Positions 10,876-31,225 of a stretch of 64,000 nucleotides of DNA are shown in pieces. The number at the start of each line of letters is the position of its first letter. Position 1 is the first letter of the stretch. Made by a program: the position numbers and the translations under genes. Origin of the DNA: a candidate division WOR-3 bacterium. GTDB lineage: Bacteria; Hydrothermota; Tepidihabitantia; Tepidihabitantales; Tepidihabitantaceae. Under the pieces are notes generated by a model. That model did no database searches. It had not been told where the DNA came from and saw nothing but the letters and a program-made list of their open reading frames with translations. The DNA is taken from assembly GCA_039801085.1 (NCBI GenBank), contig JBDRTY010000002.1, positions 319,339 to 383,338 on the forward strand, written 5' to 3'.

Positions 10876-10884
10876 CGTCTGATT

Positions 10885-15514: not shown

Positions 15515-16619
15515 CGGTTGTTCCCTCCACCTTTTTTACCACTAGGTCTATAACCCACTCACCGACCGGGTCGTACTTATAGAAACCTGCAACGCCTTGG
15601 AAATCGCTGAAATTCTCAAGTCCGGTCTTAATTTTTTGAGGAACAGTGCCGTACTTGCTGAATATTGGGGTAAGGAGGTTGAATAGTGCATCGAATTCAA
15701 TGACGGAATTCCAATTCGGGAGCGCCCCGAAGCGGGTTTCAAATTTTTTTACTATCGCTAATGTTAATGTATCAGTGACGGATGAAGCGTCAAATGCAGG
15801 GGTAGTGTAGTAAGTACCTTCCAATGCTTCCTTTGCAAGGCTGATGGTAGGTTCGACAGAAAAGTTATAGCTTCCAAGTATGTAGCCTTTGTACTGCAGT
15901 TCCTTTGTTTGCTTGAGCGCAATTCCGTTAGCTTTACCATATCCGTAGATATATATCGCTTCCGGCTTGGCAGCAATTAATCTCCTAATAGACGCCCGGA
16001 AGTCAGTTCCGTCTTTTTCAAATGCTTCGGCTTTAAGAATTTGTCCTCCCAAGCGGTGAAAATGCTGACTGAACATTTTCATTGCTGCTTCACCAAAGGC
16101 ATCGTTAATGTAAAAAATGGCGATTTTTCTTATTCCCATTTTATTAAATGCAAACTCTGCCATTTTTAAAGCCTCATGTTTACTGGTAGGAAAATTTCTG
16201 AAAACCCAGTCACTAAGAGAGGTAATTTCAGGATGGCCGCAGTTGGCGAACAGAACTACCCCTTTCTGCTCCGCTTGATTATAAATCGCCATACTTGGAG
16301 AGCTCATTACTGTAATGATCAAGGGCACACGATCAACCGTTACGAGTTTGTTGAATGCACTTACAGTTAATTTCGGTTCATTCTGATCATTTTCGTAAAT
16401 AAGCTGGAGTTTCTTACCGTTGATTCCGCCTCGTGAATTTATTTCTTCCACCGCCAAGTCAAGGCCAATTTTGTGCTGCTGTGCAATTTCAGCGGCACTC
16501 CCAGTAAGAGGTAAAATTACGCCGATCTTTATTGCTTGGGGTTCTTTCTTGCAATCTATTTGACCTAGTACCGTCAAAACTGCGGTCATAAGTATGCCAA
16601 TTTTTATTCCATTGTGCAA
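15495..16619 (-). CDS. Liv-type ABC transporter substrate-binding protein
   Basis: This 374-residue protein starts at a TTG (16619) with AGGAGG 5 bp upstream. A hydrophobic export signal (residues 5-20) is followed by a cysteine (C23) that could be lipidated, although LGQIDC is a poor lipobox. The rest is a type I periplasmic-binding fold of the leucine/isoleucine/valine family (Peripl_BP_6): IKIGVILPLTGSAAEIAQ near 31-48, GLDLAVEEINSRGGINGKKL near 52-71, and YINDAFGEAA in the middle. It faces the livHMGF-like genes across the divergent promoter region, so it is probably their binding protein. Ligand specificity cannot be read from sequence; members of this family also bind amides, aromatics and nucleobase-like compounds. 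Confidence 0.88.
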   Translation of the reverse strand: MHNGIKIGILMTAVLTVLGQIDCKKEPQAIKIGVILPLTGSAAEIAQQHKIGLDLAVEEINSRGGINGKKLQLIYENDQNEPKLTVSAFNKLVTVDRVPLIITVMSSPSMAIYNQAEQKGVVLFANCGHPEITSLSDWVFRNFPTSKHEALKMAEFAFNKMGIRKIAIFYINDAFGEAAMKMFSQHFHRLGGQILKAEAFEKDGTDFRASIRRLIAAKPEAIYIYGYGKANGIALKQTKELQYKGYILGSYNFSVEPTISLAKEALEGTYYTTPAFDASSVTDTLTLAIVKKFETRFGALPNWNSVIEFDALFNLLTPIFSKYGTVPQKIKTGLENFSDFQGVAGFYKYDPVGEWVIDLVVKKVEGTTGVQVYP

Positions 16620-16663
16620 GCTTTCCTCCTTTTATTTGTTTGGCTTCATACAATTCTATAGTA

Positions 16664-16679
16664 AGCAAATTGCGTTCCT
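16664..16679 (-). promoter_or_regulatory. Candidate sigma-54 promoter for the minus-strand arm
   Basis: On the minus strand the sequence reads AGGAACGCAATTTGCT. It has the GG and GC pairs at the -24/-12 spacing and matches the consensus TGGCACGNNNNTTGCW except at positions 1 and 4. A start of transcription about 12 bp further would leave a short leader with the AGGAGG site of the substrate-binding protein gene. An NtrC-type activator encoded in the same arm supports it. Confidence 0.55.
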
Positions 16680-16725
16680 TGTCAACAACCACACAAAAGC
16701 TTTCTGAAAAGCCAGCCGATGGGAT

Positions 16726-16758
16726 TTGATCGTCACAATCAAGTGATAACAGAATCAC
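16726..16758. promoter_or_regulatory. Two inverted repeats between divergent sigma-54 promoters (candidate activator sites)
   Basis: TTGAT-N7-ATCAA (16726-16742) and GTGAT-N6-ATCAC (16743-16758) lie directly next to each other. They sit 47-62 bp upstream of the minus promoter and 41-57 bp upstream of the plus promoter. Dyads of this size in such a place are typical of enhancer sites for NtrC-family proteins. That the activator at 5357-6808 binds here is an inference. Confidence 0.4.
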
Positions 16759-16798
16759 CTTGCGTTCATTTCTGAATCATCTTTTCCTTTGCACACGC

Positions 16799-16814
16799 TG
16801 GCACATAATTTGCA
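16799..16814 (+). promoter_or_regulatory. Sigma-54 promoter for the liv/tubulin arm
   Basis: TGGCACATAATTTGCA fits the sigma-54 consensus TGGCAC-N5-TTGCW with the exact GG/GC spacing; only the G after TGGCAC is replaced by A. Transcription would start near 16825, giving a leader of about 17 nt before the ATG of the first permease gene. It stands at the head of the nine-gene plus-strand arm. Confidence 0.75.
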
Positions 16815-16841
16815 GATGTAGTTTAAAATAGGTTGAATGTG

Positions 16842-17717
16842 ATGTTACTGCAGTTTATTGCCAATGGTTTGGTTGAGGGAGTTGTTTTAGGAATGTTTGC
16901 TTTGGGGTTTAGTATAATTTATAATTCAAGCAGAGTATTTAATTTCGCACAAGGCGGGATATTTACTGTCGCTGGGTACATAGTGTACCTCTCTTGGAAA
17001 ATTTTAAATCTGCCAATAGGCGTTGGAATAATGCTGGCGATCATAGGTGCGATTGGACTAGGGATGCTGCTTGAGAGATTGATTTTCTATCCTTTATATA
17101 GGCAACAGTCTTCACCTGCCATTGTGATTCTAAGCAGTTTAGGTAGTTATTTGGTCATTGTTAACTTGATTGTTCTTATATTAGGTAATGAGACTAGGGT
17201 TCTGAGGTCTGGGGTAGAGGAAACGTTGAAATTAGGGGGGGGCATATTAACCAAAATTCAGGTTTTTGGGGGGTGCACTGCACTGATTCTAAGTGTTCTT
17301 ACAATTATTTTGCTAAGACATACTAGGTTTGGTATAACGCTGAGGGCACTGGCAGATAACTCATCATTGATTGCAGTGCTTGGACTTGGTATTCAGCGGT
17401 TACGACTGCTGAGTTTCGCTTGGGGGTCGATGTTAGGGGGAGTGGCAGGTGTGATTGCAGCATTTGATGTCGGCATCGATCCGCACGTTGGCGGGTCAGC
17501 AGTGTTAATCGGCGCCGTGGCGACAATCCTCGGTGGTATCCGAGTCATTGAAGCAGCATTCTTTGGGGGGGTGATTATCGGAATTACTAAAAACTTGGCT
17601 GCTGGGCATATTTCGGCCCGTTGGGAGTCGGCAGTTACATTTTTTATACTGCTGATTGTGCTTTTGCTTCGGCCTCAAGGAATACTGGGAAAACGCGGTA
17701 GACTGGAGGAAATTTGA
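16842..17717 (+). CDS. livH: LivH-like ABC transporter permease
   Basis: I take the ATG at 16842, 9 bp after an AGG, over the in-frame TTG at 16833. The protein is 291 residues with about eight membrane helices. It has the branched-chain amino-acid permease pattern, for example the N-terminal GLVEGVVLGMFALGFSIIY and FNFAQGGIFTVAGYIVY segments and a cytoplasmic loop with RALADNSSLIAVLGLGIQ that contacts the ATPase. It forms the inner-membrane channel together with LivM. The stop overlaps the TTG start of the next gene. A G8 tract lies at 17235-17242. The family is certain; the gene symbol reflects family only, since the transported compound is not known. Confidence 0.88.
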   Translation: MLLQFIANGLVEGVVLGMFALGFSIIYNSSRVFNFAQGGIFTVAGYIVYLSWKILNLPIGVGIMLAIIGAIGLGMLLERLIFYPLYRQQSSPAIVILSSLGSYLVIVNLIVLILGNETRVLRSGVEETLKLGGGILTKIQVFGGCTALILSVLTIILLRHTRFGITLRALADNSSLIAVLGLGIQRLRLLSFAWGSMLGGVAGVIAAFDVGIDPHVGGSAVLIGAVATILGGIRVIEAAFFGGVIIGITKNLAAGHISARWESAVTFFILLIVLLLRPQGILGKRGRLEEI

Positions 17718-18583
17718 GTTACTTACTCCACATACTGATTATGTGTTGTATTTATCTTATTCTCGCGCAGTCACTTAATTTGCTTGTGGGGTATACTGGT
17801 TTGCTTTCAATGGCCCATGCAGCATTTTACGGGCTCGGTGCTTATATATCAGCACTGCTAATGGTCAGGGCGGGCTGGAACTTTTTCGCTACTATTCCTG
17901 TGGCAATGGTCGGAGCAATGATACTGGCAGTGATTGTGGCATTACCGTCACTTCGGTTGCGGGGAGATTATTTTTTACTTGCGACGTTGGCTTTTCAGAG
18001 TATCATCTTTTACCTTCTCTATAACTGGATATCATTTACGCGGGGTCCATATGGGATTGCGGGTATCCCCAAGCCAGAATTTCTCGGTTTTAAGATCACT
18101 AATGTACCGGAATATTTTCTGATGAGTGCACTGATCACGGGTTTAATTTTTCTGATAGTAGGTACACTTTGTTCGTCTCCTTTTGGTCGGGTGCTTAAAT
18201 CAATCAGGGAGGATGAGTTTGTCGTTGAGGCGCTGGGTAAGAACACAAGAGTTTTTAAAATTCAGGCGTTTATGACTGCTGGTGGTCTGGCAGCGGTTGC
18301 CGGTTCGCTATATGCTGCCTATGTGGCTTATATTGATCCTACCAGCTTTACTTTTGATGAATCGGTATTCATCCTTTCGATAATAATAATTGGTGGGACC
18401 GGTAATCTGAAAGGTCCAGTAGTTGGGACGCTACTGATGCTCTTTTTGCCTGAACTTCTGAGATTTTTAAGGGTTTCTGATCCCGTAGCGGCAAATGTCC
18501 GGCAAATTATTTACGGAGCTCTCCTTGTCGTGCTGATGCGAATTCGACCTCAGGGGATTTTAGGTGACTACCAGTTCGACTAA
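17714..18583 (+). CDS. livM: LivM-like ABC transporter permease
   Basis: This 289-residue membrane protein starts at a TTG overlapping the LivH stop, with GGAGGA upstream at 17705-17710. It carries the LivM pattern: SLNLLVGYTGLLSMAHAAFYGLGAY near residues 20-44, SLRLRGDYFLLATLAFQ near 80-96, and the ATPase-contact loop SIREDEFVVEALGKNT near 163-178, followed by the GGTGNLKGPVVGT segment. It pairs with LivH to form the permease. A frame overlap with the LivG gene (GTG start at 18564) shows coupled translation. Confidence 0.88.
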   Translation: MSYLLHILIMCCIYLILAQSLNLLVGYTGLLSMAHAAFYGLGAYISALLMVRAGWNFFATIPVAMVGAMILAVIVALPSLRLRGDYFLLATLAFQSIIFYLLYNWISFTRGPYGIAGIPKPEFLGFKITNVPEYFLMSALITGLIFLIVGTLCSSPFGRVLKSIREDEFVVEALGKNTRVFKIQAFMTAGGLAAVAGSLYAAYVAYIDPTSFTFDESVFILSIIIIGGTGNLKGPVVGTLLMLFLPELLRFLRVSDPVAANVRQIIYGALLVVLMRIRPQGILGDYQFD

Positions 18584-19337
18584 TGAAATGATACGGACCG
18601 AAGGGCTGGTAAAGAGTTTTGGCGGGCTGAGAGTGATAGATGATGTTACCGTTACGTTTTACCGTGGCAAGATTACCGGTTTAATCGGACCCAATGGAGC
18701 GGGCAAAACTACCCTTTTTAATATTCTCAACGGTTTCATAAAACCGGATGAGGGGGTAATTTATCTAGGGGATATCAGAATTGACTGTTTAGCCCCGTTT
18801 CAGGTTGCCCAGTTGGGAGTGGGTAGGATGTTTCAGGATACGAGAATTTTTGCCCAAATGAGTGTGTTGGACAATGTGTTGGTAGCGATAAAGGGTCAGA
18901 GTGGTGAGACCCCTTTTAATTTATTTGCTAAATATCCCAAAATCCAGCAGGAAGAAAAGGAAAATCGGCAAACTGCGATTCGCTGGTTGGAATTTGTGGG
19001 GTTAAGTGATAAAATGCAAATCCGTGCCGAAAATCTTTCCTACGGGCAACAGAAACTCTTGGCGCTTGCCCGATTGCTTGCCGGGAATAGTAGCGTATTG
19101 CTACTGGATGAACCAACTGCTGGGGTGGATCCAGGGTTTATTCCTGTGCTTCTTGATTTTTTAAAAAGACTGAAGGAAGATGGTAAAACTATAATTCTAA
19201 TAGAGCATAATATGACCGCAGTGCTTGCGGCGTGTGACTGGGTATATTTCATGGATGAAGGGAAAATTACAGCGTTCGGTTTGCCAGAAGAAGTGCTATC
19301 TGATCCTACAGTCAGAAATGCCTATCTGGGTTTATGA
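18564..19337 (+). CDS. livG: LivG-like ABC transporter ATPase
   Basis: This 257-residue ABC ATPase has Walker A GPNGAGKTT (42-50), the LivG-type FQDTRIF Q-loop region (about 92-98), the signature LSYGQQKLLALARLL (about 160-174), and Walker B LLLDEPTAGVDP followed by the H-loop IEHNM. The GTG start at 18564 is favoured by an AGGGGA stretch upstream, and no ribosome site precedes the later in-frame ATG at 18588. It overlaps LivM by 20 bp and LivF by 4 bp. It energises the Liv-type transporter. Confidence 0.9.
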   Translation: MTTSSTNEMIRTEGLVKSFGGLRVIDDVTVTFYRGKITGLIGPNGAGKTTLFNILNGFIKPDEGVIYLGDIRIDCLAPFQVAQLGVGRMFQDTRIFAQMSVLDNVLVAIKGQSGETPFNLFAKYPKIQQEEKENRQTAIRWLEFVGLSDKMQIRAENLSYGQQKLLALARLLAGNSSVLLLDEPTAGVDPGFIPVLLDFLKRLKEDGKTIILIEHNMTAVLAACDWVYFMDEGKITAFGLPEEVLSDPTVRNAYLGL

Positions 19338-20053
19338 GTCAAGCATCTGATTTGATAAAGATCGATGATATTCATGCTGGTTATGGCAGAAAAAAAATTC
19401 TATTTGGAGTTAGTATGGTGATTCACGAGGGGGAGGTGGCGGTGCTTATCGGTCCTAACGGTTCGGGAAAATCGACACTTCTTAAGGTTATTGGTGGACT
19501 TCTTCAACCATGGCAGGGAAGGGTTTACTTCAAGGGTCGCGACATCACTCAGATTTCAACGGATGCAAGAGTCAGACTTGGTTTAGGTTATTTTCTTCAA
19601 GGAGGTGAAATTTTTAGGAGTTTGAGGGTGCAGGAAAATTTGGAGGTCGGGGGTATGGGTTTGAGTCGGATCGATTTCAATCGAGCGCGCAAAGAAATTT
19701 TTGATTTGTTCCCGCAGTTAAGAGCATATCAAAACCGGCGTGCCGGGGAACTTTCTGGAGGAGAAAAACAGGCACTCGCTTTAGCCATGGTTCTGCTGCG
19801 TCGGCCGCAACTGCTTTTACTTGACGAACCATCTGCTGGACTGGCGCCGGCGCTGGTGGAGGCAATGATTAAAAAGATTGAAAATGTTAGAAAGATTTTG
19901 GGCACGACGATTTTGTTAGTAGAGCAGAATGTCCGCGAGGCACTGAGAATCGCCACTACCGTTTTTATAATTAAAAAGGGGGTAATTCTAAGCCAAGAAG
20001 AACCTGATGTAGTGCTGGAAAAGGGAAAATTGGTTGAGGTTTTTTTTCGTTGA
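19334..20053 (+). CDS. livF: LivF-like ABC transporter ATPase
   Basis: This 239-residue ABC ATPase has Walker A GPNGSGKST (40-48), signature LSGGEKQALALAMVLL (about 138-153), Walker B LLLLDEPSAGLAP and H-loop VEQNV. It is the second ATPase of a Liv-type importer. The ATG overlaps the LivG stop (ATGA). In place of the usual YVPQGR segment of LivF it reads YFLQGGEIF, a small deviation at the Q-loop. The next gene, a receiver, starts 30 bp later. Confidence 0.9.
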   Translation: MSQASDLIKIDDIHAGYGRKKILFGVSMVIHEGEVAVLIGPNGSGKSTLLKVIGGLLQPWQGRVYFKGRDITQISTDARVRLGLGYFLQGGEIFRSLRVQENLEVGGMGLSRIDFNRARKEIFDLFPQLRAYQNRRAGELSGGEKQALALAMVLLRRPQLLLLDEPSAGLAPALVEAMIKKIENVRKILGTTILLVEQNVREALRIATTVFIIKKGVILSQEEPDVVLEKGKLVEVFFR

Positions 20054-20083
20054 CAACAGGAGAAATTTATTATCTAATAAATT

Positions 20084-20458
20084 ATGGAAAGAGTATTAAT
20101 CGTCGAAGACTCCATTGAGTATGCTGAGGCATTGAAAAACATTCTTAAATTTGATTATGATGTGGTTATTGCTACCAATTTAGAAGAAGCCAAGGAGAAG
20201 GCAAACGGAAATTTCGGCGTTTTTCTAGTGGATATCCGATTAAATGAGTCAGATCCAAACAACGCTGATGGTTTGTTGTTTCTCAAATGGGCTAAACACA
20301 AGTTTTGCGAAGTTCCAGTGATAATGATGAGCGCCTACCGCGAGTTTGAGGAACAGAAAGATTGTATTGCGCAAATGGGTGCAGCATTATTTCTTAAAAA
20401 ACCTATAAGCATAAAGGATTTGAAAGAAGGTCTAAGATCAGTATTACGCAAAACTTGA
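20084..20458 (+). CDS. Single-domain response regulator (lone receiver)
   Basis: This 124-residue protein is a receiver domain only: acidic E8-D9, phosphoacceptor D50 in FLVDIRL, a serine in MMSAY and a lysine in LFLKKPIS. It has no output domain, like CheY or Spo0F, so it may act by protein contact or as a phosphorelay step. After D50 it carries the insertion NESDPNNADGLLFLK, which closely parallels DDTKPSNKDGIELLK in the NtrC protein of the opposite arm; the two receivers probably share a kinase. It lies between the transporter and vWA/tubulin genes and may link them to the signal. Confidence 0.9.
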   Translation: MERVLIVEDSIEYAEALKNILKFDYDVVIATNLEEAKEKANGNFGVFLVDIRLNESDPNNADGLLFLKWAKHKFCEVPVIMMSAYREFEEQKDCIAQMGAALFLKKPISIKDLKEGLRSVLRKT

Positions 20459-20496
20459 CAGAGTAAGAATGTTTTATTAATTTTTTTTAGATTTTT

Positions 20497-21633
20497 ATGT
20501 TTTGGACAAACCGAGCCATAAAATACTTATTTCTGTATTTACTTTTGGTTCCGGGAGATGTCGCAGCTCAGAAAACTCTAATTTTTGTAATCGATGTTTC
20601 TGGTAGTATGCGCTACGATAACCTTTACCAGCGGGTAACGGGTTCGTTAGTTGATTTTATTCGTCGCGAGTTTAAAGAGGGGGATAATATTGTTTTGTGT
20701 TCGTTCGGGAATGATTTCTATATCAACAAAGAGCTTAATGAAGTGAAGAACTTGTGGTCGAGTAATATCTTGCAAGAAATTGAGCGCTTAGCTTTTAACG
20801 ATCAATGGACTTATATGACGCTTGCCTTTGCTCGAGTAGCAGAGATCGCCGAACGCTATCGACTACGCTCACCAAGCAACCCGATCTACATTTATCTTTT
20901 CACTGATGGTAAAAATGAGCCACCGCCCAAGGTTAAGAATCCACTGAGTTTTAAGCAGATTCTTGAGTGGTATTTTAGCAGCTATCAAGCCGAAAATACC
21001 TACCTTTATGTTGTTACTTTAGGGACTCAACCTCAGGATAGCCTTACAATGTTTGTGGAATCTACGGGAGGAGAGATTGTTTCAGTGCCGCGAGAAATTA
21101 AAATGAAGAACCTTTCTTCAGAGATTCCATCGGCCCAGACCCCCCCCCCCAAGAAAGGCGAACAAGATGTTGCTCGGCAGAAATCGAGGGTAGAATCCCA
21201 TTCGCAAAAGAGAGATGGAAGATACTGGCTGATTTTAGTGATTGGTGGAGGGATTTTGCTGCTGGCACTGGTTTTTGTGATCGTTAAGTATAAGTTTAGA
21301 TTGGCTGAATTTCCGCCAGATGCTCAGCTGTTATGGCTTGATGATGTTGGACATACGATCGATCGGTTTAATTTGAGACAGCATCAGAAAGTTGGTAAAA
21401 ATAAATTGCTGATTTCAGGTGATATCGATATTCCAGGCATCGCAATCGGTGAACTGGAGTTATCAGTGCACAGAGACGGGAATGTCTTTTTGAACGTCAA
21501 ACAGCCCGATAAATCAGTTAAAATAATGGGGGAAGTCGGGGGAGAAATTAAGGCTGGAGAAAGATATCTTTTAACTTCAAATATCGAATTTGAATACAAC
21601 AGCGTTAAACTGAAATACGAGAAAGGAGATTAA
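20497..21633 (+). CDS. Membrane-anchored von Willebrand factor A (vWA) protein
   Basis: The 378-residue protein has a signal or anchor sequence (residues 8-24) followed at once by a vWA domain with the MIDAS motif DVSGS (33-37), a later threonine in the QWTYMT region, and FTDGKNEP (about residue 136). A proline-rich linker near residues 214-220 is coded by a C11 tract (21140-21150). One membrane helix follows (about 243-265), then a C-terminal beta-rich domain of about 110 residues, perhaps FHA-like but not certain. By topology the vWA domain is outside the inner membrane and the C-terminal domain inside. vWA proteins commonly act as metal-dependent adhesion partners in large assemblies; here the partner is likely the tubulin-like GTPase encoded 2 bp downstream. 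Confidence 0.82.
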   Translation: MFWTNRAIKYLFLYLLLVPGDVAAQKTLIFVIDVSGSMRYDNLYQRVTGSLVDFIRREFKEGDNIVLCSFGNDFYINKELNEVKNLWSSNILQEIERLAFNDQWTYMTLAFARVAEIAERYRLRSPSNPIYIYLFTDGKNEPPPKVKNPLSFKQILEWYFSSYQAENTYLYVVTLGTQPQDSLTMFVESTGGEIVSVPREIKMKNLSSEIPSAQTPPPKKGEQDVARQKSRVESHSQKRDGRYWLILVIGGGILLLALVFVIVKYKFRLAEFPPDAQLLWLDDVGHTIDRFNLRQHQKVGKNKLLISGDIDIPGIAIGELELSVHRDGNVFLNVKQPDKSVKIMGEVGGEIKAGERYLLTSNIEFEYNSVKLKYEKGD

Positions 21634-21635
21634 AT

Positions 21636-24600
21636 ATGGCTTCAATTCTAATTGGTTTGGGCGGTTTTGGGACTGGGGTTGTGCGCAGGGTTAAGCGTTT
21701 GTTTGAAGAAAATCCCGCTTATCACGGATTGATCAATCAAACCGTCTTTTTTTCCTCCATTGATATTGACCCTGATTTTGAGTCGGAGATTGCTTCTATC
21801 GATCAGATTTATTGGGAAGGATTCCGTGTCAGTAGGCCCAAACATGAAATTGATAAGCTGTTTAAAGAAGATGCAAATTTTAAGTATTGGTGGATTCCTG
21901 GTTTTACTTTAGAATCAGAGATAAAGGGAACAAGGGGGGCAGGTCAAATTAGAATTGCTGGCCGACTGGCTTTTTATTTGCATTTTCCCCGAATTAAATC
22001 AGCAATTAAAGAACGTATCGATCAGGCCAATGAACTGCGAGCCAAGTTACAGAAAGATCAGGGTATGGCAGCAGTAAATACTCCCAATGTTGTATTTTTG
22101 GTAAGTTCGCTTGCCGGGGGGACAGGTTCCGGCATACTGATCGACACAGCGATGTTAGTTAGGAGTTTGGTTGATGAGTCATACAAGATTTACGGCGTGT
22201 TCTGCGATGGGTCGGTAGTTGAAAAATTTGCGGGAGGTAATACCAAGTTATACGGGTTTGCTACATTGACCGAAATTGAACGATGGATGGAAAAGGGTGA
22301 TACTTTTGAATTTCATTATGGTAATATAAACGCAACGGTAAAAGGGCAAAATAGATTATTTGATATTGTGTTTCTTATACAGTCAGACAATTTACAGGGT
22401 CGGACATTTTACGTGCGAGGGGGTGGTGACCGAGAAATCAGAAACAATTATCAAGAATTGCTTGCTTCTTTTTTGGGGACGCTCCTTACATCTATTGACT
22501 TCGATGAGACGCTAGCCGCAAATTCTTGGAACAGATTTGATGCTTTGCCTCTCACTTCCAATGGGCGAAGCCGTAATTATTCCACCTTCGGTATTAGTCA
22601 TATATCGTTTCCAGTGCACAAGGTAACAAATTATTGCTATTCCCGTTTGATTAGCGAAGTATTGAAATTAGGATTTGATTTTTCCAATCCTGACTTGCAA
22701 AAATTTGAAAGAGATAATTCAATTTGCGAACGTGATGGAAATCAGTTGACAAATTATTTGCGCGATAAATGCCGGTCGGCGAGGTCTTATAAGGCAAAGA
22801 GAGACCGGGAGTTAATACGTTTTAGTGCTCCCCGGATTAAAAATACAGCGAGCTTTGTGAATTTGTTAGCACCGCACGGAATAGAAAAACTCATACTTGA
22901 TTATTCAGATTTGATAGAGGGTTATAAAAAAGAGTTATCTCAGGAATTGGAAGATCTGAAGAAAGTAATAACGAAAAACTTTGAGCGCACAATTTTTGAA
23001 TTGGTTGCGAGTCTTAGGTTTGACGAACTGAATAAGATCTTAGAGGAATTCATTGGAGTGATGCAAGCTAATATAGAACACACTAACCGGTCAAAACCAT
23101 TATGGGATAAAGCTGACGCACTTCGCGAACAATTAAGTGCTCGATACGATGCAGTGCTAAAGTGTAAAAGGGGTTTTATGGGTATTGGTGATGAGTTTCC
23201 CTCTCGAAAAGGAGAATTTGTTGCTACCCTGAAACAATGGACTGATGCCGAAATACAATCAGCTGAACGTAAAATAATGGAAAAGTTCTACAAAGAAATA
23301 ATTGAAACTACGAAACACATCAAATGGGTAATTCAATATCTTGGCGGTATTCTTAACGACTATGTTGCTCAGTGTGCTCGACAAACTGGAGCGTATGTGC
23401 AGCACGACTGGATTGTTGATCCTGAACGTTTTAGTTCTGGTGAATATCTTTTAAATTTAGAACTTTCGACATCGAAGTCTGATGTAGATGAATATATTTA
23501 CCCCGATATTAAAAAGATCTTTAAAGACGAGGGGGTTAGACAAGAAATCATCAATGGTTGTGAAAAAAAATACGATGGCATCGGGACTATTATAAGAGAA
23601 TTGTATGATAAGTATATTCAAGATCCCAATAAAATGGCAAAGTCGCTTAATAATAGCAGGAATGAATATGCCGCAAAGTTAGAGCAGACTTTTACCGGGG
23701 CAATTAAATCAAAAGTTTATGACTTGGTAAAAAGAATTCGGGTAGATGATGCGATGACGTGGTTTTTGCAGCGGACTTACAATGAGGTAAAGAACGTAAT
23801 GACTAATGGAAGCGGTGCTGAACAAGAGGGGGTTAAAAATCGCCTCAGCATGGTTTTTGGTACTGCTACGGCAAATCTGCTTATGAACAAAGATTATAAT
23901 GAGGATAGGTGGATGCGAGAGGCAGCACGGGGAATTCTAAAGCAGATGTCAGAATTGACGCAGCCTTTTATAAAAATTGAGGAGAACGACATAATAAGAG
24001 ATAATCAAGGGGAAGATCAGGTAGAGCACATCAAGATTCAGGTGGTATTTGCCCCAGAAAATTTTAAGTTCGCTAAAGAAATACCAGTTTCCTCTTGCAT
24101 TTATACAAAAATGACAGATAGAATTACTTTTTACACCCAACTGTCTTTCTTTCCTCTGTATCGAGTATTGTCATTTAAAGAAATAGCCGAGGCGTATAAT
24201 AAACATGTGGAAACTATTTTATCTGCCGTGGATAAAGGGCGTAAAACTGGAATTCCAGCGCATGCAGATTACAGGTTTTATACGATATGGCGCGATAATA
24301 TTTTGCACCCGGTGGCTAAAGAAGAGGAACGAATGAAGGACGTTATTTTATTGATACTTCTTGGAATGGCAATGGGATTTATCAAACGCGATAAACAAAT
24401 ATTCCGTATCTATTCCCCACGAGGAGAGGAGATTGGAAATCCTATCCGGGGGGTTGAGGCACTTTATAATCAGCTACTTAACGATCAAATTACTCGAAGG
24501 CAGCTTGGCACTTTGGTATGCGAGAAATTCATGAATGAATATTATGGTGATGATAAGCTTAAAGCGGTACAGAATCTCTTCAAAATAGCACAGCAGGAAT

Positions 24601-24755
24601 TGAAAAAGATCAAAACAGATAAAAACAGTAGCAGTTATAAGATCCTAAGCTTGCTGATTAAATTATCCTCAATAATGGATAAGAGCACTGTGATTCCAAA
24701 CTCAAATAAAGAATTAGAGGAATTGGCTAAAAGGTTGCAACAGTTAAGGCAATAA
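21636..24755 (+). CDS. Tubulin/FtsZ-superfamily GTPase-like protein (Tubulin_2 type)
   Basis: At 1039 residues it is far longer than FtsZ. The N-terminal part reads as a tubulin-like nucleotide-binding fold: the T1 loop GLGGFGTG (7-14), RGAGQIRIAGR (100-110) as a possible T3 region, and the signature T4 loop SLAGGTGSG (158-166). A hydrophobic strand FDIVFLIQSDN follows near 242-252. The remainder (about 350-1039) is largely helical and charged, with long segments that may be coiled coil, and no membrane helix. I recall that Makarova and Koonin (2010) described FtsZ-like families that occur with vWA proteins and were proposed to act in membrane remodelling; this gene fits that class in general. 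The gene lies 2 bp after the vWA gene and before a membrane protein gene. Polymerisation is inferred, not shown. Confidence 0.8.
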   Translation: MASILIGLGGFGTGVVRRVKRLFEENPAYHGLINQTVFFSSIDIDPDFESEIASIDQIYWEGFRVSRPKHEIDKLFKEDANFKYWWIPGFTLESEIKGTRGAGQIRIAGRLAFYLHFPRIKSAIKERIDQANELRAKLQKDQGMAAVNTPNVVFLVSSLAGGTGSGILIDTAMLVRSLVDESYKIYGVFCDGSVVEKFAGGNTKLYGFATLTEIERWMEKGDTFEFHYGNINATVKGQNRLFDIVFLIQSDNLQGRTFYVRGGGDREIRNNYQELLASFLGTLLTSIDFDETLAANSWNRFDALPLTSNGRSRNYSTFGISHISFPVHKVTNYCYSRLISEVLKLGFDFSNPDLQKFERDNSICERDGNQLTNYLRDKCRSARSYKAKRDRELIRFSAPRIKNTASFVNLLAPHGIEKLILDYSDLIEGYKKELSQELEDLKKVITKNFERTIFELVASLRFDELNKILEEFIGVMQANIEHTNRSKPLWDKADALREQLSARYDAVLKCKRGFMGIGDEFPSRKGEFVATLKQWTDAEIQSAERKIMEKFYKEIIETTKHIKWVIQYLGGILNDYVAQCARQTGAYVQHDWIVDPERFSSGEYLLNLELSTSKSDVDEYIYPDIKKIFKDEGVRQEIINGCEKKYDGIGTIIRELYDKYIQDPNKMAKSLNNSRNEYAAKLEQTFTGAIKSKVYDLVKRIRVDDAMTWFLQRTYNEVKNVMTNGSGAEQEGVKNRLSMVFGTATANLLMNKDYNEDRWMREAARGILKQMSELTQPFIKIEENDIIRDNQGEDQVEHIKIQVVFAPENFKFAKEIPVSSCIYTKMTDRITFYTQLSFFPLYRVLSFKEIAEAYNKHVETILSAVDKGRKTGIPAHADYRFYTIWRDNILHPVAKEEERMKDVILLILLGMAMGFIKRDKQIFRIYSPRGEEIGNPIRGVEALYNQLLNDQITRRQLGTLVCEKFMNEYYGDDKLKAVQNLFKIAQQELKKIKTDKNSSSYKILSLLIKLSSIMDKSTVIPNSNKELEELAKRLQQLRQ

Positions 24756-24771
24756 AAGCACTGTTCACTTA

Positions 24772-26799
24772 ATGTCTTTATCAGCCGCCACTTGTTTACT
24801 CTATTTAGTTAAAAGTGGTGATGGCATGTGGGATTTATTCAAATCTTTTGCTAATGATTTTTATAACCAGGTTAAACCGGAATCGCCAAGTATTAAAGTT
24901 AAAATTGGGGCGGTTGCTGACATCGAATCCACAATGAATGAAATCAACAAAGAAATCACACCTAGGGAGGTTATTTTTTTCCCCTTGATCGATGTTCAAT
25001 CGGCTTCCCAGGAGATTTATCACAGCCTCAACATACTCGGTGATAAGTACCCTAATATCATAATTTACACTTATCCGATTTTATTTTTGCCGTCCAATGC
25101 AGTTGTTGATTTTCTAAGGGAATTCCCAGATAAATTCTCTAATTACTCTAATTTTGAGTTTTGCTTTTTTTTCTCTGATAAAGATACGAGCAACCGCGCT
25201 GTTAAACCGGTTGATTGGATTGTGTTACTTAATCATTTTATGGCGCTGGTTCATGCAATAATATCAAATGGCGAATTGCGGTACTGGTTAGAAAAATTTA
25301 GCAACAGAGGTAAAGATGAAAAAGGCATTGCTAGCTTTGGGGCAACTTTGTTTCAGCTTCCGATTCGAAGGTTGATCGACGATAAATTAAGCACTAAATT
25401 TAAGGAATTCAGCGAAAATCACCTTAAAAAAATTAATAATAGGTTTGAAGTTAATCCTGAGGAACTGGTAAAAGAAGTTGTTGAAAAGGGTGTTGATCAA
25501 ATATTTTCCCGTTATTCGAATCCTCCGATTGATAGTCCCTTTACCCATATGCATGATGTTACTGACTATCCCTGTCTGCTGAAAACTAACTGCGAAGTGG
25601 ATAAGTCCCGAATTAAAGAAGAATCTCAAAGGATAACCGCCGAAGTTTTGAATACTGTTTACAACTCTCTTTATGATCATGTTAAAAAACATACTGTTGA
25701 AATTAATGAAGGGCTGAAAGAGATTAGAAAAACATCGGTACAAAAACTTCAAGAAGCGATTCCGGGATTTTTAAGAGGGGGCGGTACATTGATCGCCTTA
25801 GAAGAATGGTTGGAAAAAAGGGAAAAGGAAGCAAACGTTATTAATTCTAAAATGGATTACTTTCCTGAAGAGCAGAGATACATTTTTATTCCAGCACTTA
25901 ATAAAGTAGCCGAAATTTTAAAAAAGTTGTATTATTGGCAATCAAAGTTTCGATATATGGTTATCTTTTTTTTAGTTGGCTATGTTATTTTTTTATTGAC
26001 TGTGATTGCGTTATTTTCATTGGGGGGGGGAAACTTCCGGAACTTTATGCGATCAATTTTAGTGGGGGGAGGGGTCTTTTTTTTAATATTAGTTGTTCGT
26101 TATTTGAAATTGAACGCGATAAAAAATAAGGGGGCTACAGTTTTGAAAGAACTAAAAGATCAATATGACAGTTTTATAAAGAATACGACACATGATATTA
26201 AAGAGTGGTTCAAGAGATGGTTAGTAAAGCATTTGTCTACTAAACTGATAATTAGTTTTGAAAATGTTCTTGACGAAATAAGAGAGATATGCTTTATTTG
26301 GCGCCGGACTTTACAAAACTTTGAGTTCTGTAAAAATTCTGATACGCCGTCCCAGTTTGTTCAGGAAATAAATTCCCACGGGAATTTATTAGATGATTTG
26401 ATTGACAAGGAAGTTCAAAAAAAGGAAGTTTTTCAAAATCTATCTGTGATATTTGATCATTTCTTGGAGAGTGTTTCTTATCATAATCTGTCTAAAAATA
26501 TACAAACCACCTTAATCCAATTAAGAGAAGAAATTTTTCAAATAATCGAACAAGAAATTCCGCCTCCCTTGATAGGGTTGGGCGCAAATAAATTAAATGA
26601 TTACATTAGAGTAACCGATAATAATATTGTGACGGGTTGTTCGTCCTTAATTAAACCTGAAACACCCAAGTTGTATTTTGTTGTTAAACCCCAGAGTCTC
26701 ACTTTGGAATTTAGCGTTGAAAAAACCTTTAATTGGAACCATAAAGAAGCTCTGTTAATAACCGTAATATACAAGCTAATTCCAACTAAATATGATTGA
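24772..26799 (+). CDS. Two-TM, coiled-coil-rich membrane protein of unknown function
   Basis: The protein is 675 residues. Residues 1-390 are soluble and rich in Lys, Glu and Asn with probable coiled coils. Two membrane helices lie at about 395-450 (VIFFLVGYVIFLLTVIALF and ILVGGGVFFLILVV). The C-terminal 220 residues are again soluble and helical. Both large domains would thus be on the same side, probably the cytoplasm, as no signal peptide is seen. A G9 tract (26022-26030) falls in the loop between the helices. No family is recognised. Position right after the tubulin-like gene suggests a membrane tether for that protein. No good ribosome site precedes the ATG; a start at a later methionine (residue 19) is possible. 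It overlaps the next gene by 8 bp. Confidence 0.72.
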   Translation: MSLSAATCLLYLVKSGDGMWDLFKSFANDFYNQVKPESPSIKVKIGAVADIESTMNEINKEITPREVIFFPLIDVQSASQEIYHSLNILGDKYPNIIIYTYPILFLPSNAVVDFLREFPDKFSNYSNFEFCFFFSDKDTSNRAVKPVDWIVLLNHFMALVHAIISNGELRYWLEKFSNRGKDEKGIASFGATLFQLPIRRLIDDKLSTKFKEFSENHLKKINNRFEVNPEELVKEVVEKGVDQIFSRYSNPPIDSPFTHMHDVTDYPCLLKTNCEVDKSRIKEESQRITAEVLNTVYNSLYDHVKKHTVEINEGLKEIRKTSVQKLQEAIPGFLRGGGTLIALEEWLEKREKEANVINSKMDYFPEEQRYIFIPALNKVAEILKKLYYWQSKFRYMVIFFLVGYVIFLLTVIALFSLGGGNFRNFMRSILVGGGVFFLILVVRYLKLNAIKNKGATVLKELKDQYDSFIKNTTHDIKEWFKRWLVKHLSTKLIISFENVLDEIREICFIWRRTLQNFEFCKNSDTPSQFVQEINSHGNLLDDLIDKEVQKKEVFQNLSVIFDHFLESVSYHNLSKNIQTTLIQLREEIFQIIEQEIPPPLIGLGANKLNDYIRVTDNNIVTGCSSLIKPETPKLYFVVKPQSLTLEFSVEKTFNWNHKEALLITVIYKLIPTKYD

Positions 26800-29593
26800 C
26801 ATTAAGGCAATTATTGAAAAGCCTGAAAATCTAAGGTATTATAAAGGTCAGGTTTATGAGGTTGATGAGGTAGGGATAGTTGAACCCAAATACTACGATA
26901 TAGAGAAGATAGGTATTCCATATAAAAATATCCTGAAGGTTTTATTGAGCAATTTGCAACTTTCCCATTTATACCAACACCAAGGGTTATTCATTAAGGA
27001 GATAGCTGATGGAAAGGATGCTTATTTATGTTTAGCACCAGGAAGTGGTAGTTCAATGGCGGTGGACTTAGCGGTAGTTGCGACAATACTTACTAAACAT
27101 CGGACTGCGTTGTACCTCCGCCCGTCAACTTATGATTTGCGGTCGCGGCTGGCAGTAGTTAATGATCGCATAAAACAAATGAGGTGGGATTGGTTGGTGA
27201 AAGCCGAAAAGGCAGACTGTATTGAGGAATTCTGTTCGGCACTCGGGAGGGAGCCGGATATAATCATAACAGCACCGGAAGTTTTTAAGGAGTATTTTTT
27301 AACTAAATTCTCGGTTGAGGAGGGATCCACTTGGATGGATGCGTTACTGCATGTTGTGATTGAGGAAATCACAATGTTTCACCCGGAGGAGTTATTTCAT
27401 CTCAGCAATCTTATTTCTTCCTTAATAATTGAGAGAAATAACTCAATTCAATTTTTACTCACAAGTGCACCAGTTGGGTCACCAGAAAAATTTGCCCGTA
27501 ATTTAACCCACCGGAACTGCTCGGTTATAACAAGTAGCTATAGCGGCAACAATAGATTCAAAATTTTATATTGGATTCCCCAGATTGTAGCCAAGGTTGA
27601 TGACGACACTGGAGAAATTCAAGTTTTTCGGGAAAATTTTTTCGAAGAATTAAAAGGTTGCTTCAAAATTTTTTGTCGTTCAGAAGATAACATTCTGGTT
27701 TGGAATTTAATTCAAAGTTTTAGTTCCGCAGATTACCGTTTACTTAAAGAAGATTTGTTGCGTTCGGTGCAGTTAGAAATCCCCAAGTTGGAAATAACAA
27801 TATGTGGCGATATTTCCGAAATACCTCGTGACAAATTTAAAAAGTTTAATCGAGTATTTGTTTTAGGAACGGCACCAATCTACAAAAATATCAAGCAGAT
27901 ACTCAGTAATTTAATTACCGAAAATGGCTTGGCAATAATAATTGCCAACGAAGATCCATTATCGTTTTTCTTTGTACGCAGGTTGGATATGGTTGATAAG
28001 CTTCGTTTACCAGACATTATAATTCCTCAAAATAAAAGTGTAACGGAGTTTTATTTTTTTAGAACTCTTGCTAGTAAAAGAATAAATTCTTTAGGTTATG
28101 AACAATTGATTTCTGTTTGGGGTAAAGAACTAACAGAAGAGATTCTCAGCCAACTTGTACAGGAAAAGTTAATTGAAAAAGGTGACGGTAGGGTTTACGT
28201 ATTAGACCGAGATAAAATTTATGACAAGCAGAAAGATATTCCATGGGGCATCATGGATAAAAACTTTTATGAGCTTTCAACGAGTAGCCAAGAAATTTAC
28301 TCAATAAGAAAGTTTGTAACAGAATCACTTTTCCCATATATTGTCTACCCTGAAGCAGTTATTTATAACGGGCTGGAAAAATACCAAATATCTTCCAGTT
28401 TTGACGGCAGTTTTGACGGTGATAAATGTAAGCTTAATTACGCAACAGAGCATACCCCGGTGTTGACTGTCCCGATAATTAATCACTTATTTTCAAGCAA
28501 GCACACCGAACCAATTGCTTATAAAGAAATTAAAGGATTAGGAAGATTGGAATTATTACCCGAACAAACGATTGAAATTCAATTCTGCGGGTTTAAATAT
28601 TTTTTAGATTTTAAGTTTCAGAATACGGGGGAGGTAAAGGTTAAACCAATTAGTCGTATAAGAAAAACATCGCTGATTAAATTTAACACAGATAGCTCCG
28701 CAGGCATTGCTCAGATTTGGAATATCTTTCTTCCCTATTTTTTCCACAATTTTGAACGGCTGATTGCTGTTTTCTCTGACGAATCCGCTGTTTATATTAT
28801 TCCTCTGGTCGACAGTGGTAATGAAGTGTTGAAGGAGATTTATGAGGGTATGGTAGAATTACTTAATTTACTTTATGAGTACGGGTATGAATTGCTAATT
28901 TCTTGCCCTTGTTCTGATGGTTGTCCACTATGTATAGAATACAAAAAAACAAATGTAACGCTCAAAGGGAAAAAACACGATATCTTGCTAACAATAGGGC
29001 AGGCTTTGGGCAAAGAATCAGAAACCAAGAAATTCCTTATCTATAAATCTGAGGGGCTTGATGCTGATTCAGCCCAAAAACAATACGAGGCAGAACAAAA
29101 AAGAATCATCGGACTTTTTCGCAACAAATTAGGTCTGGAAATTCAAAAGCCAGCGAGAATCACGGTTGATAACTTAGATAAAAAACTATTAGGTTTTTGT
29201 TCTTCCGAAGGTGGAGTAAAGGTGATTCCTAAGATTCCTCAAGCATTGGCAATTCAAGTCATTGCTCACGAATATGCTCATAACTGGGAATTTGAACAGA
29301 CCAACAGCAATGTTTTGAAAGAAAAAATAATTAGTGAAGGGTTTGCTGAATGGGTTGCATTTAAAATTTTGGAGTTTTATGGTTTGTTGGATTATATTGG
29401 AAAGATCAAACTACGGGACTATGACGAATATGGTAAAGGGTTTAATTTATGTAAAAGAATCGAAGATGAAATAGCTGGTTTTCTAGGGGTGATCGAGTTT
29501 GTTAAAACAGGTATAGTTAGAAATCCATTAAATAATGAGGAATACGATTTAGCCCGATTAATGGAGGAAGGCTGGGTATATTATAACAAATAA
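26792..29593 (+). CDS. Degenerate MrfA/Hrq1-type helicase fused to HExxH metallopeptidase
   Basis: This is a 933-residue protein. The first ~700 residues follow the layout of superfamily-2 helicases of the MrfA/Hrq1 (DUF1998) group: a Q-motif-like YQHQ (61-64), and a Walker A position that reads APGSGSSMA (82-90) in place of APTGSGKT. The DExH position reads EEIT (191-194), and a cysteine cluster CPCSDGCPLC near 704-713 corresponds to the zinc site of MrfA. Loss of the catalytic Lys and Asp suggests no ATP-driven helicase activity. The last ~130 residues contain HEYAH (about 825-829) and a downstream EGFAEW glutamate about 20 residues later, the pattern of a gluzincin-type zinc metallopeptidase. 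I infer a nucleic-acid- or nucleotide-sensing scaffold that controls a protease. It ends the plus-strand arm. Confidence 0.75.
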   Translation: MIDIKAIIEKPENLRYYKGQVYEVDEVGIVEPKYYDIEKIGIPYKNILKVLLSNLQLSHLYQHQGLFIKEIADGKDAYLCLAPGSGSSMAVDLAVVATILTKHRTALYLRPSTYDLRSRLAVVNDRIKQMRWDWLVKAEKADCIEEFCSALGREPDIIITAPEVFKEYFLTKFSVEEGSTWMDALLHVVIEEITMFHPEELFHLSNLISSLIIERNNSIQFLLTSAPVGSPEKFARNLTHRNCSVITSSYSGNNRFKILYWIPQIVAKVDDDTGEIQVFRENFFEELKGCFKIFCRSEDNILVWNLIQSFSSADYRLLKEDLLRSVQLEIPKLEITICGDISEIPRDKFKKFNRVFVLGTAPIYKNIKQILSNLITENGLAIIIANEDPLSFFFVRRLDMVDKLRLPDIIIPQNKSVTEFYFFRTLASKRINSLGYEQLISVWGKELTEEILSQLVQEKLIEKGDGRVYVLDRDKIYDKQKDIPWGIMDKNFYELSTSSQEIYSIRKFVTESLFPYIVYPEAVIYNGLEKYQISSSFDGSFDGDKCKLNYATEHTPVLTVPIINHLFSSKHTEPIAYKEIKGLGRLELLPEQTIEIQFCGFKYFLDFKFQNTGEVKVKPISRIRKTSLIKFNTDSSAGIAQIWNIFLPYFFHNFERLIAVFSDESAVYIIPLVDSGNEVLKEIYEGMVELLNLLYEYGYELLISCPCSDGCPLCIEYKKTNVTLKGKKHDILLTIGQALGKESETKKFLIYKSEGLDADSAQKQYEAEQKRIIGLFRNKLGLEIQKPARITVDNLDKKLLGFCSSEGGVKVIPKIPQALAIQVIAHEYAHNWEFEQTNSNVLKEKIISEGFAEWVAFKILEFYGLLDYIGKIKLRDYDEYGKGFNLCKRIEDEIAGFLGVIEFVKTGIVRNPLNNEEYDLARLMEEGWVYYNK

Positions 29594-29626
29594 ATGACCA
29601 ATATATACCGAAGAATTGATTTTGGG

Positions 29627-30634
29627 TTATGTTCTAACCGCATGCCCTAATGCCCCGACCAGGTCAATCGCCTTGACCGGGCAGACAAGGACACACTGGC
29701 CACAGCCGATGCACTTTTCGGGGATGACCCGGTGCTGTTTTCCGGGGTCACCTTCAATCGCCTTGAACTGACAAACTTTGACACATTCACCGCAGCCGGT
29801 ACAGCGGGGATTGATAGATGCTTTGGGTCGGCCTGGTGCCCGGTCGATAAATGATTTGGTCGGACATTTGTGAACGCAGATGCCGCAGTCAATGCACTTT
29901 TGAAAGTCCATGACTGGCAGGTTGTTTTCCATTCTCAGGGCGCCAACCGGGCAGACCCGCGTACACAGTCCGCAGGCGATGCAGCCGACCGAGCAAACCT
30001 CTTTAACCGCCCGCCCGCGGTCGTGAGAAACACAGGCGAGGTAGACCAGTTTCGAACGGGGAATCAGGCTCAGCGTTCCCTTCGGGCATTCGGCTACGCA
30101 CTTGCCACAGCCGATGCATTTTCTTTCGTCGATAATTGGCAGCCGGTTTTCGCCCATTCTGATCGCCTTGACCGGGCAGACAGTGACGCAGTGTCCAAAG
30201 CCCACACAGCCGTAGATGCAGGCTTTGGGTCCGCCGAGCAGAAGAGCTGCCTGACGGCAGTTTTCGGCCCCCTTATATTGGAAGCGTTGGGGTGCCTGAT
30301 CCTTGCCTCCGCGGCAGATGAGAACCGCCACTTTCGGTTCAGCTGCGGTTACCTCCTGCCCCATGATTTCGCCGATTTTCTTGGCTACTTCAGGTCCGCC
30401 GACTGAGCAGGCGTTCAACGGTGCCTTGCCCGCGGCAATCGCAGCGGCATAACCGTCGCAACCGGGATAGCCGCAGGCACCGCAGTTGGCGCCAGGCAGG
30501 ACCGAGCGGATGCGGGCTTCCCGTTCATCAACCTTGACCGCCAGTTTGATGGAGGCGAGCAGCAGAATCACGCCCAGAATCAGTCCCAGTCCTCCCAGGG
30601 TGATGAGCGATTTGATAACCAGTGACCAGTCCAT
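29627..30634 (-). CDS. rnfB: Rnf complex subunit B (polyferredoxin)
   Basis: The 335-residue protein begins with one membrane helix (residues 8-28). Next comes the RnfB-type Fe4S domain with cysteines in NCGACGYPGCDGYAAAI (about 50-66), and then several CxxCxxCxxxCP ferredoxin motifs, more than the two of the shortest RnfB proteins (for example CVGFGHCVTVCP, CIGCGKCVAECP, CIACGLCTRVCP, CIDCGICVHKCP, CTGCGECVKVCQ, CIGCGQCVLVCP). It is the likely entry point for electrons from ferredoxin. It is the last gene of the operon, 2 bp after rnfA, and its stop lies 33 bp from the end of the AT-rich locus. Confidence 0.93.
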   Translation of the reverse strand: MDWSLVIKSLITLGGLGLILGVILLLASIKLAVKVDEREARIRSVLPGANCGACGYPGCDGYAAAIAAGKAPLNACSVGGPEVAKKIGEIMGQEVTAAEPKVAVLICRGGKDQAPQRFQYKGAENCRQAALLLGGPKACIYGCVGFGHCVTVCPVKAIRMGENRLPIIDERKCIGCGKCVAECPKGTLSLIPRSKLVYLACVSHDRGRAVKEVCSVGCIACGLCTRVCPVGALRMENNLPVMDFQKCIDCGICVHKCPTKSFIDRAPGRPKASINPRCTGCGECVKVCQFKAIEGDPGKQHRVIPEKCIGCGQCVLVCPVKAIDLVGALGHAVRT

Positions 30635-31224: not shown

Positions 31225-31225
31225 T

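What the first reader, a model, noticed from the sequence alone, without database searches (positions are those of the whole stretch)
20497..26799. vWA - tubulin-like GTPase - two-TM coiled-coil module
The 1039-residue protein has GLGGFGTG and SLAGGTGSG loops of the tubulin superfamily plus a long helical extension. It is flanked by a membrane vWA protein and a coiled-coil membrane protein. FtsZ-like/vWA associations have been predicted to remodel membranes, but the partners here (transporter, receiver, pseudo-helicase) are new to me.
Basis: partly seen in the sequence, partly recalled or inferred. Interest (0 to 1): 0.78.

Follow-up and report, generated by a model that had tools for sequence, protein, structure and literature searches.

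The report
Phosphorelay-controlled island carrying a membrane tubulin
A bacterium has acquired, in one piece, a 24-kb set of genes in which a nutrient-type transporter and a bacterial signalling relay appear to control two outputs: a tubulin-like machine at the cell membrane, and an enzyme of a type otherwise known from antiviral CRISPR systems; this suggests, without proving it, an undescribed stress or immune response.

Summary
Positions 20497-26799 encode a membrane-anchored vWA protein, an FtsZ-like-1 (Tubulin_2) GTPase and a two-TM protein. The vWA/FtsZl1 pair is known (Makarova & Koonin 2010). The triad belongs to a 24,296-bp acquired island (5334-29629) that is exactly absent from two same-genus genomes. 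It holds a branched-chain-type ABC transporter, a standalone receiver, a sigma-54 response regulator, a split histidine-kinase-like protein and a divergent receiver fused to a Cad1-type adenosine deaminase. The window's only perfect sigma-54 promoter (16799-16814) faces the operon that ends in the FtsZl1 module. The transporter/receiver/regulator core recurs in four other WOR-3 genomes, where its transporter genes form one clade. In one of these a different vWA-FtsZl1 subfamily was recruited; a shared tubulin origin is rejected (AU p = 1e-4). The deaminase slot is exchanged (HD-type hydrolase in another). Best reading: a phosphorelay-switched conflict or stress system whose outputs are a membrane FtsZl1 machine and a nucleotide-attacking enzyme. 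Its composition is well supported; its function is inferred. Structure prediction failed (pLDDT 35), so neither a tubulin fold nor contacts were shown.

The parts
5334..29629 (.). Acquired island, 24,296 bp
   Evidence: Exactly absent in same-genus G001 (window 1-5333 and 29630-31397 lie 58 bp apart there) and absent in G002; GC 39.4% against 54-55% in the flanks
5357..6808 (-). Sigma-54 (NtrC-type) response regulator, 483 aa
   Evidence: Sigma54_activat E=4.6e-64, Response_reg 1.4e-16; 44-46% identical over full length in three other islands
6858..9908 (-). Divergent receiver fused to Cad1-type adenosine deaminase, 1016 aa
   Evidence: PADLOC CARF5--CARF_ADA E=1.8e-81 over residues 366-1000; best PDB hits are CARF/ring-nuclease adenosine deaminases 9c67, 9ebt; receiver part supported only by motif order, a half-domain profile match and BLAST E=0.004 to a true receiver
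9895..10875 (-). 326-aa island protein family
   Evidence: Weak similarity to L025 397 aa and L033 369 aa, which match each other at 2e-30; PADLOC HEC-02A E=2.6e-5
10885..12984 (-). Histidine-kinase-like ATPase half, 699 aa, with C-terminal pseudo-receiver-like part
   Evidence: Aligns with single-chain relatives L033 827 aa, L011 942 aa, L031 1422 aa; N-box-like RNAAKH and GxxGLKEIKVCA
12975..13970 (-). Histidine-kinase-like phosphoacceptor half, 331 aa
   Evidence: RRSAVAAIMARNLSHYDSH at the C-terminus, 53% identical over 38 aa to the same region of L033 827 aa
13937..15514 (-). Methyltransferase + GNAT-like protein, 525 aa
   Evidence: TRM5-TYW2_MTfase E=4.7e-8; PADLOC mads_2 1.8e-13
15495..16619 (-). 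Periplasmic LIV/amide-type binding protein (LivJ-like)
   Evidence: Peripla_BP_6 E=1.1e-49; closest PDB 3td9
16799..16814 (+). Perfect sigma-54 promoter TGGCACATAATTTGCA
   Evidence: Only exact match in 64 kb; exact match also upstream of the LivJ operon of island L033
16833..20053 (+). LIV-type permeases and ATPases (livH, livM, livG, livF)
   Evidence: BPD_transp_2 and ABC_tran; LivM in a 100/100 clade with the four other island copies
20084..20458 (+). Standalone receiver, 124 aa, acidic pocket intact
   Evidence: Response_reg E=1.6e-14; the best matches in 147 WOR-3 genomes are the other islands
20497..21633 (+). vWA protein: signal peptide, MIDAS vWA, TM, cytoplasmic tail
   Evidence: 35% identical vWA next to a related FtsZl1 in L008
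21636..24755 (+). FtsZ-like 1 (Tubulin_2) GTPase, 1039 aa
   Evidence: PF13809 E=1.1e-41
24772..26799 (+). Two-TM protein, 675 aa; possibly a degenerate tubulin-like partner
   Evidence: TM segments; marginal profile match to FtsZl1 (E 0.013, not robust)
26792..29593 (+). Degenerate DEAD helicase + Cys4 + HExxH metallopeptidase-like protein, 933 aa
   Evidence: DEAD E=3.9e-8; closest PDB MrfA/YprA 6znp; BrxHI 1e-5

Best explanation
The vWA-FtsZl1-two-TM module is an output arm of a horizontally acquired, sigma-54- and phosphorelay-controlled conflict or stress-response island. A LIV-type ABC transporter with its periplasmic binding protein senses an envelope or small-molecule cue. A split, soluble histidine-kinase-like pair passes phosphate to several receivers. 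The sigma-54 regulator then fires the promoter at 16799, raising transporter, receiver, vWA, FtsZl1, two-TM protein and helicase-peptidase together. The receiver fused to a Cad1-type deaminase becomes an enzyme that attacks adenine nucleotides. FtsZl1 assembles with GTP on the inner membrane, tethered by the vWA protein's cytoplasmic tail and the two-TM protein, and remodels or seals the membrane. Shown: gene content, island borders, recurrence of the core, the exact promoter match and the deaminase's family. Inferred: kinase activity, phosphotransfer between these proteins, filament formation, and the defence or stress purpose.
For: (1) The unit: 5334-29629 is missing as one block in two same-genus genomes, with distinct GC. 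(2) The core (LIV transporter plus receiver and/or sigma-54 regulator) recurs in G012, G028, G130 and G143. Island LivM copies form a 100/100 clade apart from other LIV transporters. The standalone receiver's best three matches elsewhere in 147 genomes are islands (E 1.7e-31, 2e-30, 2.1e-23); the next score, 2.4e-13, is the window island's own sigma-54 regulator. (3) FtsZl1 is functionally linked: two of the five cores carry vWA-FtsZl1 in the same gene cluster, and the two tubulins come from different subfamilies (win+L008 98/95; L011+L034 100/100; AU p = 1e-4 against a common clade). This implies two recruitments. (4) Control: exact sigma-54 promoter in front of the operon, matched in island L033. 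(5) Effectors: the deaminase matches PADLOC CARF_ADA at 1.8e-81. The G012 counterpart is a receiver plus HD domain (HD-CE 2.6e-4; CARF_HD 1.3e-3). Close relatives of the deaminase protein occur only in G000 and G130, both beside the receiver and LIV genes. Cad1 converts ATP to ITP in antiviral immunity (PMC11645235). (6) In Thermales plasmids the vWA-FtsZl1-~680 aa triad sits beside BrxL and helicase/methyltransferase genes, i.e. in a BREX-like defence setting.
Against: The kinase-like pair matches no Pfam or PDB kinase profile, and a comparison with one canonical kinase was negative. The receiver part of the deaminase fusion is divergent. The clearest recurrence is confined to one phylum (five cores, two broken by contig ends), and G028's core has no FtsZl1. 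No Cas, restriction or toxin gene marks the island as defence, and LIV transporters and deaminases also serve ordinary nutrient metabolism. No structural support was obtained.
Confidence: 0.5

Rival explanations
1. Nutrient-response system: the LIV transporter and two-component genes sense and import an amino acid, amide or nucleoside; deaminase, methyltransferase and peptidase process it, and FtsZl1/vWA organises the membrane for uptake. No conflict role.
For: LivJ resembles ordinary LIV/amide binding proteins. Variable enzymes near livJ include ordinary metabolic folds: a lysine-2,3-aminomutase-like radical SAM protein in L011, and an HMGL-like enzyme and a DHOD/Maf-like protein in L033. Sigma-54 control is typical of nitrogen and amino-acid metabolism (established knowledge).
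Against: The deaminase is of the CARF_ADA type rather than the housekeeping add type. Its slot holds an HD-CE-like hydrolase in G012. Patchy single-block acquisition and effector exchange are typical of conflict systems.
Confidence: 0.25
2. The FtsZl1/vWA/two-TM module is an independent published-type membrane-remodelling operon that happens to lie beside a transporter/two-component cluster within one acquired block.
For: FtsZl1/vWA operons stand alone elsewhere (PMC2875224; L008, L009, L010, L012), and G028's core lacks FtsZl1.
Against: The module follows the receiver in one operon with gaps of 2-38 bp, behind an exact sigma-54 promoter. A different vWA-FtsZl1 pair sits in the same cluster in G012, recruited separately.
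Confidence: 0.15
3. Member of the vWA/GTPase/tubulin conflict systems of Burroughs and colleagues (GAP1-N2 type), with the GTPase replaced by a phosphorelay.
For: Those systems pair tubulin-coiled-coil proteins with membrane vWA proteins and variable effectors (PMC7159879); the gut contig L097 shows such a pair.
Against: No GAP1/TRAFAC GTPase, MoxR or FNIII protein was found in the island. [quoted passage not shown]
Confidence: 0.1

Closest known systems
FtsZ-like 1 (FtsZl1; Pfam Tubulin_2 PF13809) operons with vWA proteins, Makarova & Koonin 2010 (PMC2875224)
   Same: Same GTPase family, vWA gene immediately upstream, membrane partners, patchy distribution
   Different: No Ser/Thr kinase, P-loop GTPase or OmpA partner; here the module follows a LIV transporter and a receiver, in a sigma-54 operon with a helicase-peptidase
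Cad1, CARF-fused adenosine deaminase of type III CRISPR (PMC11645235)
   Same: Deaminase domain of the same type (PADLOC E 1.8e-81; PDB 9c67, 9ebt)
   Different: CARF sensor absent; a divergent receiver takes the N-terminal place; no CRISPR genes in the island
vWA/GTPase/tubulin conflict systems (GAP1-N2), Burroughs et al. 2020 (PMC7159879)
   Same: Tubulin with helical extension, membrane vWA, exchangeable effectors
   Different: No GAP1 GTPase, HSP70 or FNIII; control by transporter and phosphorelay
Thermales plasmid vWA-FtsZl1-~680 aa triad beside BrxL (NC_014213, NC_019387)
   Same: Same gene order vWA, FtsZl1, ~680-aa third protein; helicase and methyltransferase or exonuclease genes nearby
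   Different: No transporter or two-component genes; third protein without the two clear TM segments; homology of the third proteins not shown
MrfA/YprA DEAD helicase (PDB 6znp)
   Same: DEAD domain similarity; both carry a cysteine zinc-cluster region (inferred for this protein)
   Different: Walker A lysine lost; C-terminal HExxH metallopeptidase-like domain

Membership tests
FtsZ-like 1 (Tubulin_2) | N-terminal tubulin/FtsZ GTP-binding domain with T1 and T4 loops | tested here: met
   PF13809 E=1.1e-41; GLGG.GT and GGTGSG conserved
FtsZ-like 1 (Tubulin_2) | vWA protein encoded in the same operon | tested here: met
   vWA gene 2 bp upstream
FtsZ-like 1 (Tubulin_2) | Extended coiled-coil and helical C-terminal region | tested here: inconclusive
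   About 690 aa follow the GTPase domain; helices only in a model with pLDDT 35
FtsZ/tubulin superfamily | Tubulin fold and GTP-dependent polymer | tested here: inconclusive
   Model unusable; polymerisation not testable here
Cad1 (type III CRISPR CARF-ADA) | Cad1-type adenosine deaminase domain with HxH metal site | tested here: met
   PADLOC 1.8e-81; LHCHLGG aligned with 9c67 and 9ebt
Cad1 (type III CRISPR CARF-ADA) | N-terminal CARF domain | tested here: not met
   The match starts at profile position 208 of 605; the N-terminus aligns weakly with receivers
Cad1 (type III CRISPR CARF-ADA) | Cas10/type III genes nearby | tested here: not met
   No Cas family among the island proteins scanned
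Two-component phosphorelay | Receiver domains with acidic pocket | tested here: met
   Standalone receiver 1.6e-14; regulator receiver 1.4e-16
Two-component phosphorelay | Histidine kinase | tested here: inconclusive
   H-box-like and N-box-like motifs conserved in four relatives; no profile support
Sigma-54 regulon | NtrC-type activator plus -24/-12 promoter | tested here: met
   presence of rpoN in the genome not tested
GAP1-N2 tubulin/vWA conflict systems | GAP1 TRAFAC GTPase in the operon | tested here: not met
   No such domain in the island
LIV/HAAT ABC transporter | Binding protein, two BPD_transp_2 permeases, two ATPases | tested here: met

The most novel reading that the evidence does not exclude
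A new class of bacterial immune or stress system in which an ABC transporter plus phosphorelay takes the place of cyclic-nucleotide sensing. It switches on receiver-fused versions of CRISPR-type effectors (Cad1-like deaminase, HD hydrolase) and, through its own sigma-54 promoter, an FtsZl1/pseudo-tubulin machine that acts on the membrane.
Probability: 0.3. Interest if true: 0.92.

Novelty: new variant of a known kind. Interest (0 to 1): 0.72.

Why it matters
In the library searched, I found no experimental function for FtsZl1 sixteen years after it was described. Here it is wired to a defined input, a defined promoter and a second, enzymatic output, so its trigger and timing become testable. 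A Cad1-type deaminase without CARF, apparently under receiver control, would show that CRISPR ancillary effectors move between signalling logics. Two separate recruitments of vWA-FtsZl1 into the same transporter/two-component core argue that the membrane machine and the relay work together.

Tried and rejected
The idea that the two-TM protein is a degenerate tubulin got E = 0.013 with one profile but did not stand out among 148 control proteins with a second; kept as a lead only. FtsZl1 relatives in viral contigs: none in five scans. Genome contigs returned only a WOR-3 locus already known as G080. Plasmids and phages: distant FtsZl1 only; no relatives of the two-TM or kinase-like proteins in plasmids. 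Listed plasmid hits of the deaminase cover only the deaminase part, and those with a listed gene are annotated add. No tRNA, terminal repeats or integrase at the island ends. Considered and rejected: membership in type III CRISPR or GAP1 systems (defining parts absent).
Full report
WHAT IS THERE. The three genes exist as described: a vWA protein (20497-21633), an FtsZ-like-1 GTPase (21636-24755; Tubulin_2 E = 1.1e-41) and a 675-aa protein with two TM segments (24772-26799). The T1 loop GLGGFGTG and T4 loop GGTGSG are conserved across homologues sharing only 17-28% identity. The vWA protein has a signal-peptide-like start, a MIDAS sequence, one TM segment and a tail after it, so by hydropathy the vWA domain faces outward and the tail faces the GTPase. 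The tail is similar to that of L008. The vWA-FtsZl1 pairing itself is published (PMC2875224).

THE UNIT IS A 24-KB ISLAND. In the same-genus genome G001 (89% identical upstream), window 1-5333 and 29630-31397 are continuous except for 58 bp; G002 is empty too. The inserted 24,296 bp has 39.4% GC against 54-55% in the flanks, with no integrase, tRNA or terminal repeat. It holds 16 genes in two divergent, tightly packed operons. Left: livJ, methyltransferase-GNAT, 331 aa, 699 aa, 326 aa, receiver-deaminase, sigma-54 regulator. Right: livH, livM, livG, livF, receiver, vWA, FtsZl1, two-TM, helicase-peptidase.

PROMOTER. The intergenic region between livJ and livH holds TGGCACATAATTTGCA at 16799-16814. 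It is the only exact sigma-54 consensus in the 64-kb window (by base counting I expect about 0.0002 in 213 bp, my arithmetic). It faces the livH-to-peptidase operon, so the FtsZl1 module is probably switched on by the island's own NtrC-type regulator. Island L033 has an exact site upstream of its livJ operon. No such site was found in the available stretches of G012, G143 or G130.

THE CORE RECURS. The phylum is candidate division WOR-3 (title of L026; 147 genomes held). The core was found in G012 (L011/L025), G028 (L033/L038), G130 (L095, contig-limited) and G143 (L089, contig-limited). The LivM genes of these five islands form a clade with 100/100 support, apart from other LIV transporters of the phylum. 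The window's receiver has its best hits in the other islands (E 1.7e-31, 2e-30, 2.1e-23), then drops to 2.4e-13. The sigma-54 regulator is 44-46% identical over full length in three of them. FtsZl1 itself is rare: 12 of 147 genomes.

FTSZL1 WAS RECRUITED TWICE. G012 carries vWA, FtsZl1, two dCTP-deaminase-like proteins, receiver, livHMGF and livJ in one direction. Its tubulin belongs with L034 (100/100), while the window's belongs with L008 (98/95). Forcing the two into one clade is rejected, p-AU 1e-4. Two separate captures of a vWA-FtsZl1 pair by one signalling core are hard to explain without a functional link. G028's core has no FtsZl1, so the tubulin arm is one of several possible outputs.

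THE SECOND OUTPUT. The 1016-aa protein is a Cad1-type deaminase: PADLOC CARF5--CARF_ADA E = 1.8e-81 over residues 366-1000, best PDB hits 9c67 and 9ebt, HxH site aligned. The CARF part is missing. The N-terminal region carries ILVIDD, VDLLLG and a Ser...Lys half that aligns in register with receivers, and it matches the true receiver of L025's 912-aa protein at E = 0.004; I call it a divergent receiver. In G012 the same slot holds a receiver (1.6e-6) fused to an HD-CE-like hydrolase (2.6e-4; CARF_HD 1.3e-3). In G130 a 49-52% identical deaminase lies directly before the receiver-livH-livM genes; its N-terminus is cut by the contig end. Cad1 turns ATP into ITP during antiviral immunity (PMC11645235); that this enzyme does the same is inference.

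THE KINASE. The 331-aa and 699-aa proteins align in order with single-chain relatives of 827, 942 and 1422 aa: an R..AV.AI..RN.AH..GSH box, an N-box-like ENxxRNxxKH, a glycine motif with CAGLL, and a C-terminal pseudo-receiver-like part. The window copy is split between phosphoacceptor and ATPase parts; the G012 copy appears split further downstream. No profile confirms a GHKL fold, so 'histidine kinase' stays an inference.

THIRD GENE AND PEPTIDASE. In Thermus and Allomeiothermus plasmids a protein of about 680 aa follows vWA-FtsZl1, next to BrxL and helicase, exonuclease or methyltransferase genes. In L012 the neighbouring 701-aa protein is the best non-tubulin match to the FtsZl1 profile (P = 4.5e-4). 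The window's two-TM protein shows only a marginal match. A catalytically dead tubulin partner is an attractive but unproven idea. The helicase-like protein has lost its Walker A lysine and ends in HEYAH...E; small HExxH proteins also lie beside the LIV genes of G028 and near the vWA-tubulin genes of G090.

MECHANISM. Shown: a single inserted block, operon order, exact promoter match, conserved core, deaminase identity. Inferred: vWA topology (hydropathy only), transporter as sensor, phosphotransfer, promoter activation by this regulator, GTP-driven membrane assembly, deaminase activation, defence or stress purpose.

VERDICT. The triad is a known kind of module in a setting I did not find described: searches of the open-access library found no account of receiver-fused Cad1-type deaminases or of FtsZl1 with a LIV transporter and two-component genes. 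That library lacks most subscription papers, so novelty is provisional.

Noticed in passing
L031/L032 (G135:C1:58000-90000): A polar-amino-acid ABC transporter next to a 1422-aa relative of the kinase-like protein, several receivers, a sigma-54 regulator, a ubiquitin-like protein and a ThiF/E1-like protein (read by eye): possibly a cousin system with a different transporter and a ubiquitin-like output.
   Followed up: partly
L033:4434-6425 (G028): One protein joins a DHOD-like domain, a ferredoxin domain and a Maf nucleotide pyrophosphatase domain inside the island core.
   Followed up: no
L033:2751-3854 (G028): Receiver followed by a region with weak similarity to class III nucleotide cyclases (Guanylate_cyc E = 0.13), a possible third kind of receiver-linked output.
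   Followed up: no
L036:10366-24956 and L037:10395-20363 (Allomeiothermus and Thermus plasmids): vWA-FtsZl1-~680 aa triad beside BrxL and helicase/methyltransferase or exonuclease genes; FtsZl1 may be an unrecognised accessory of BREX-like systems.
   Followed up: partly
L097 (MT836542, human gut contig recorded as phage): A vWA-tubulin pair on a contig labelled bacteriophage; it looks like a bacterial (Firmicutes-type) fragment.
   Followed up: no
window 13937-15514: Methyltransferase + GNAT protein matches PADLOC mads_2 at 1.8e-13; the slot next to livJ holds a radical-SAM aminomutase-like protein in L011 and an HMGL-like plus a methyltransferase in L033.
   Followed up: partly
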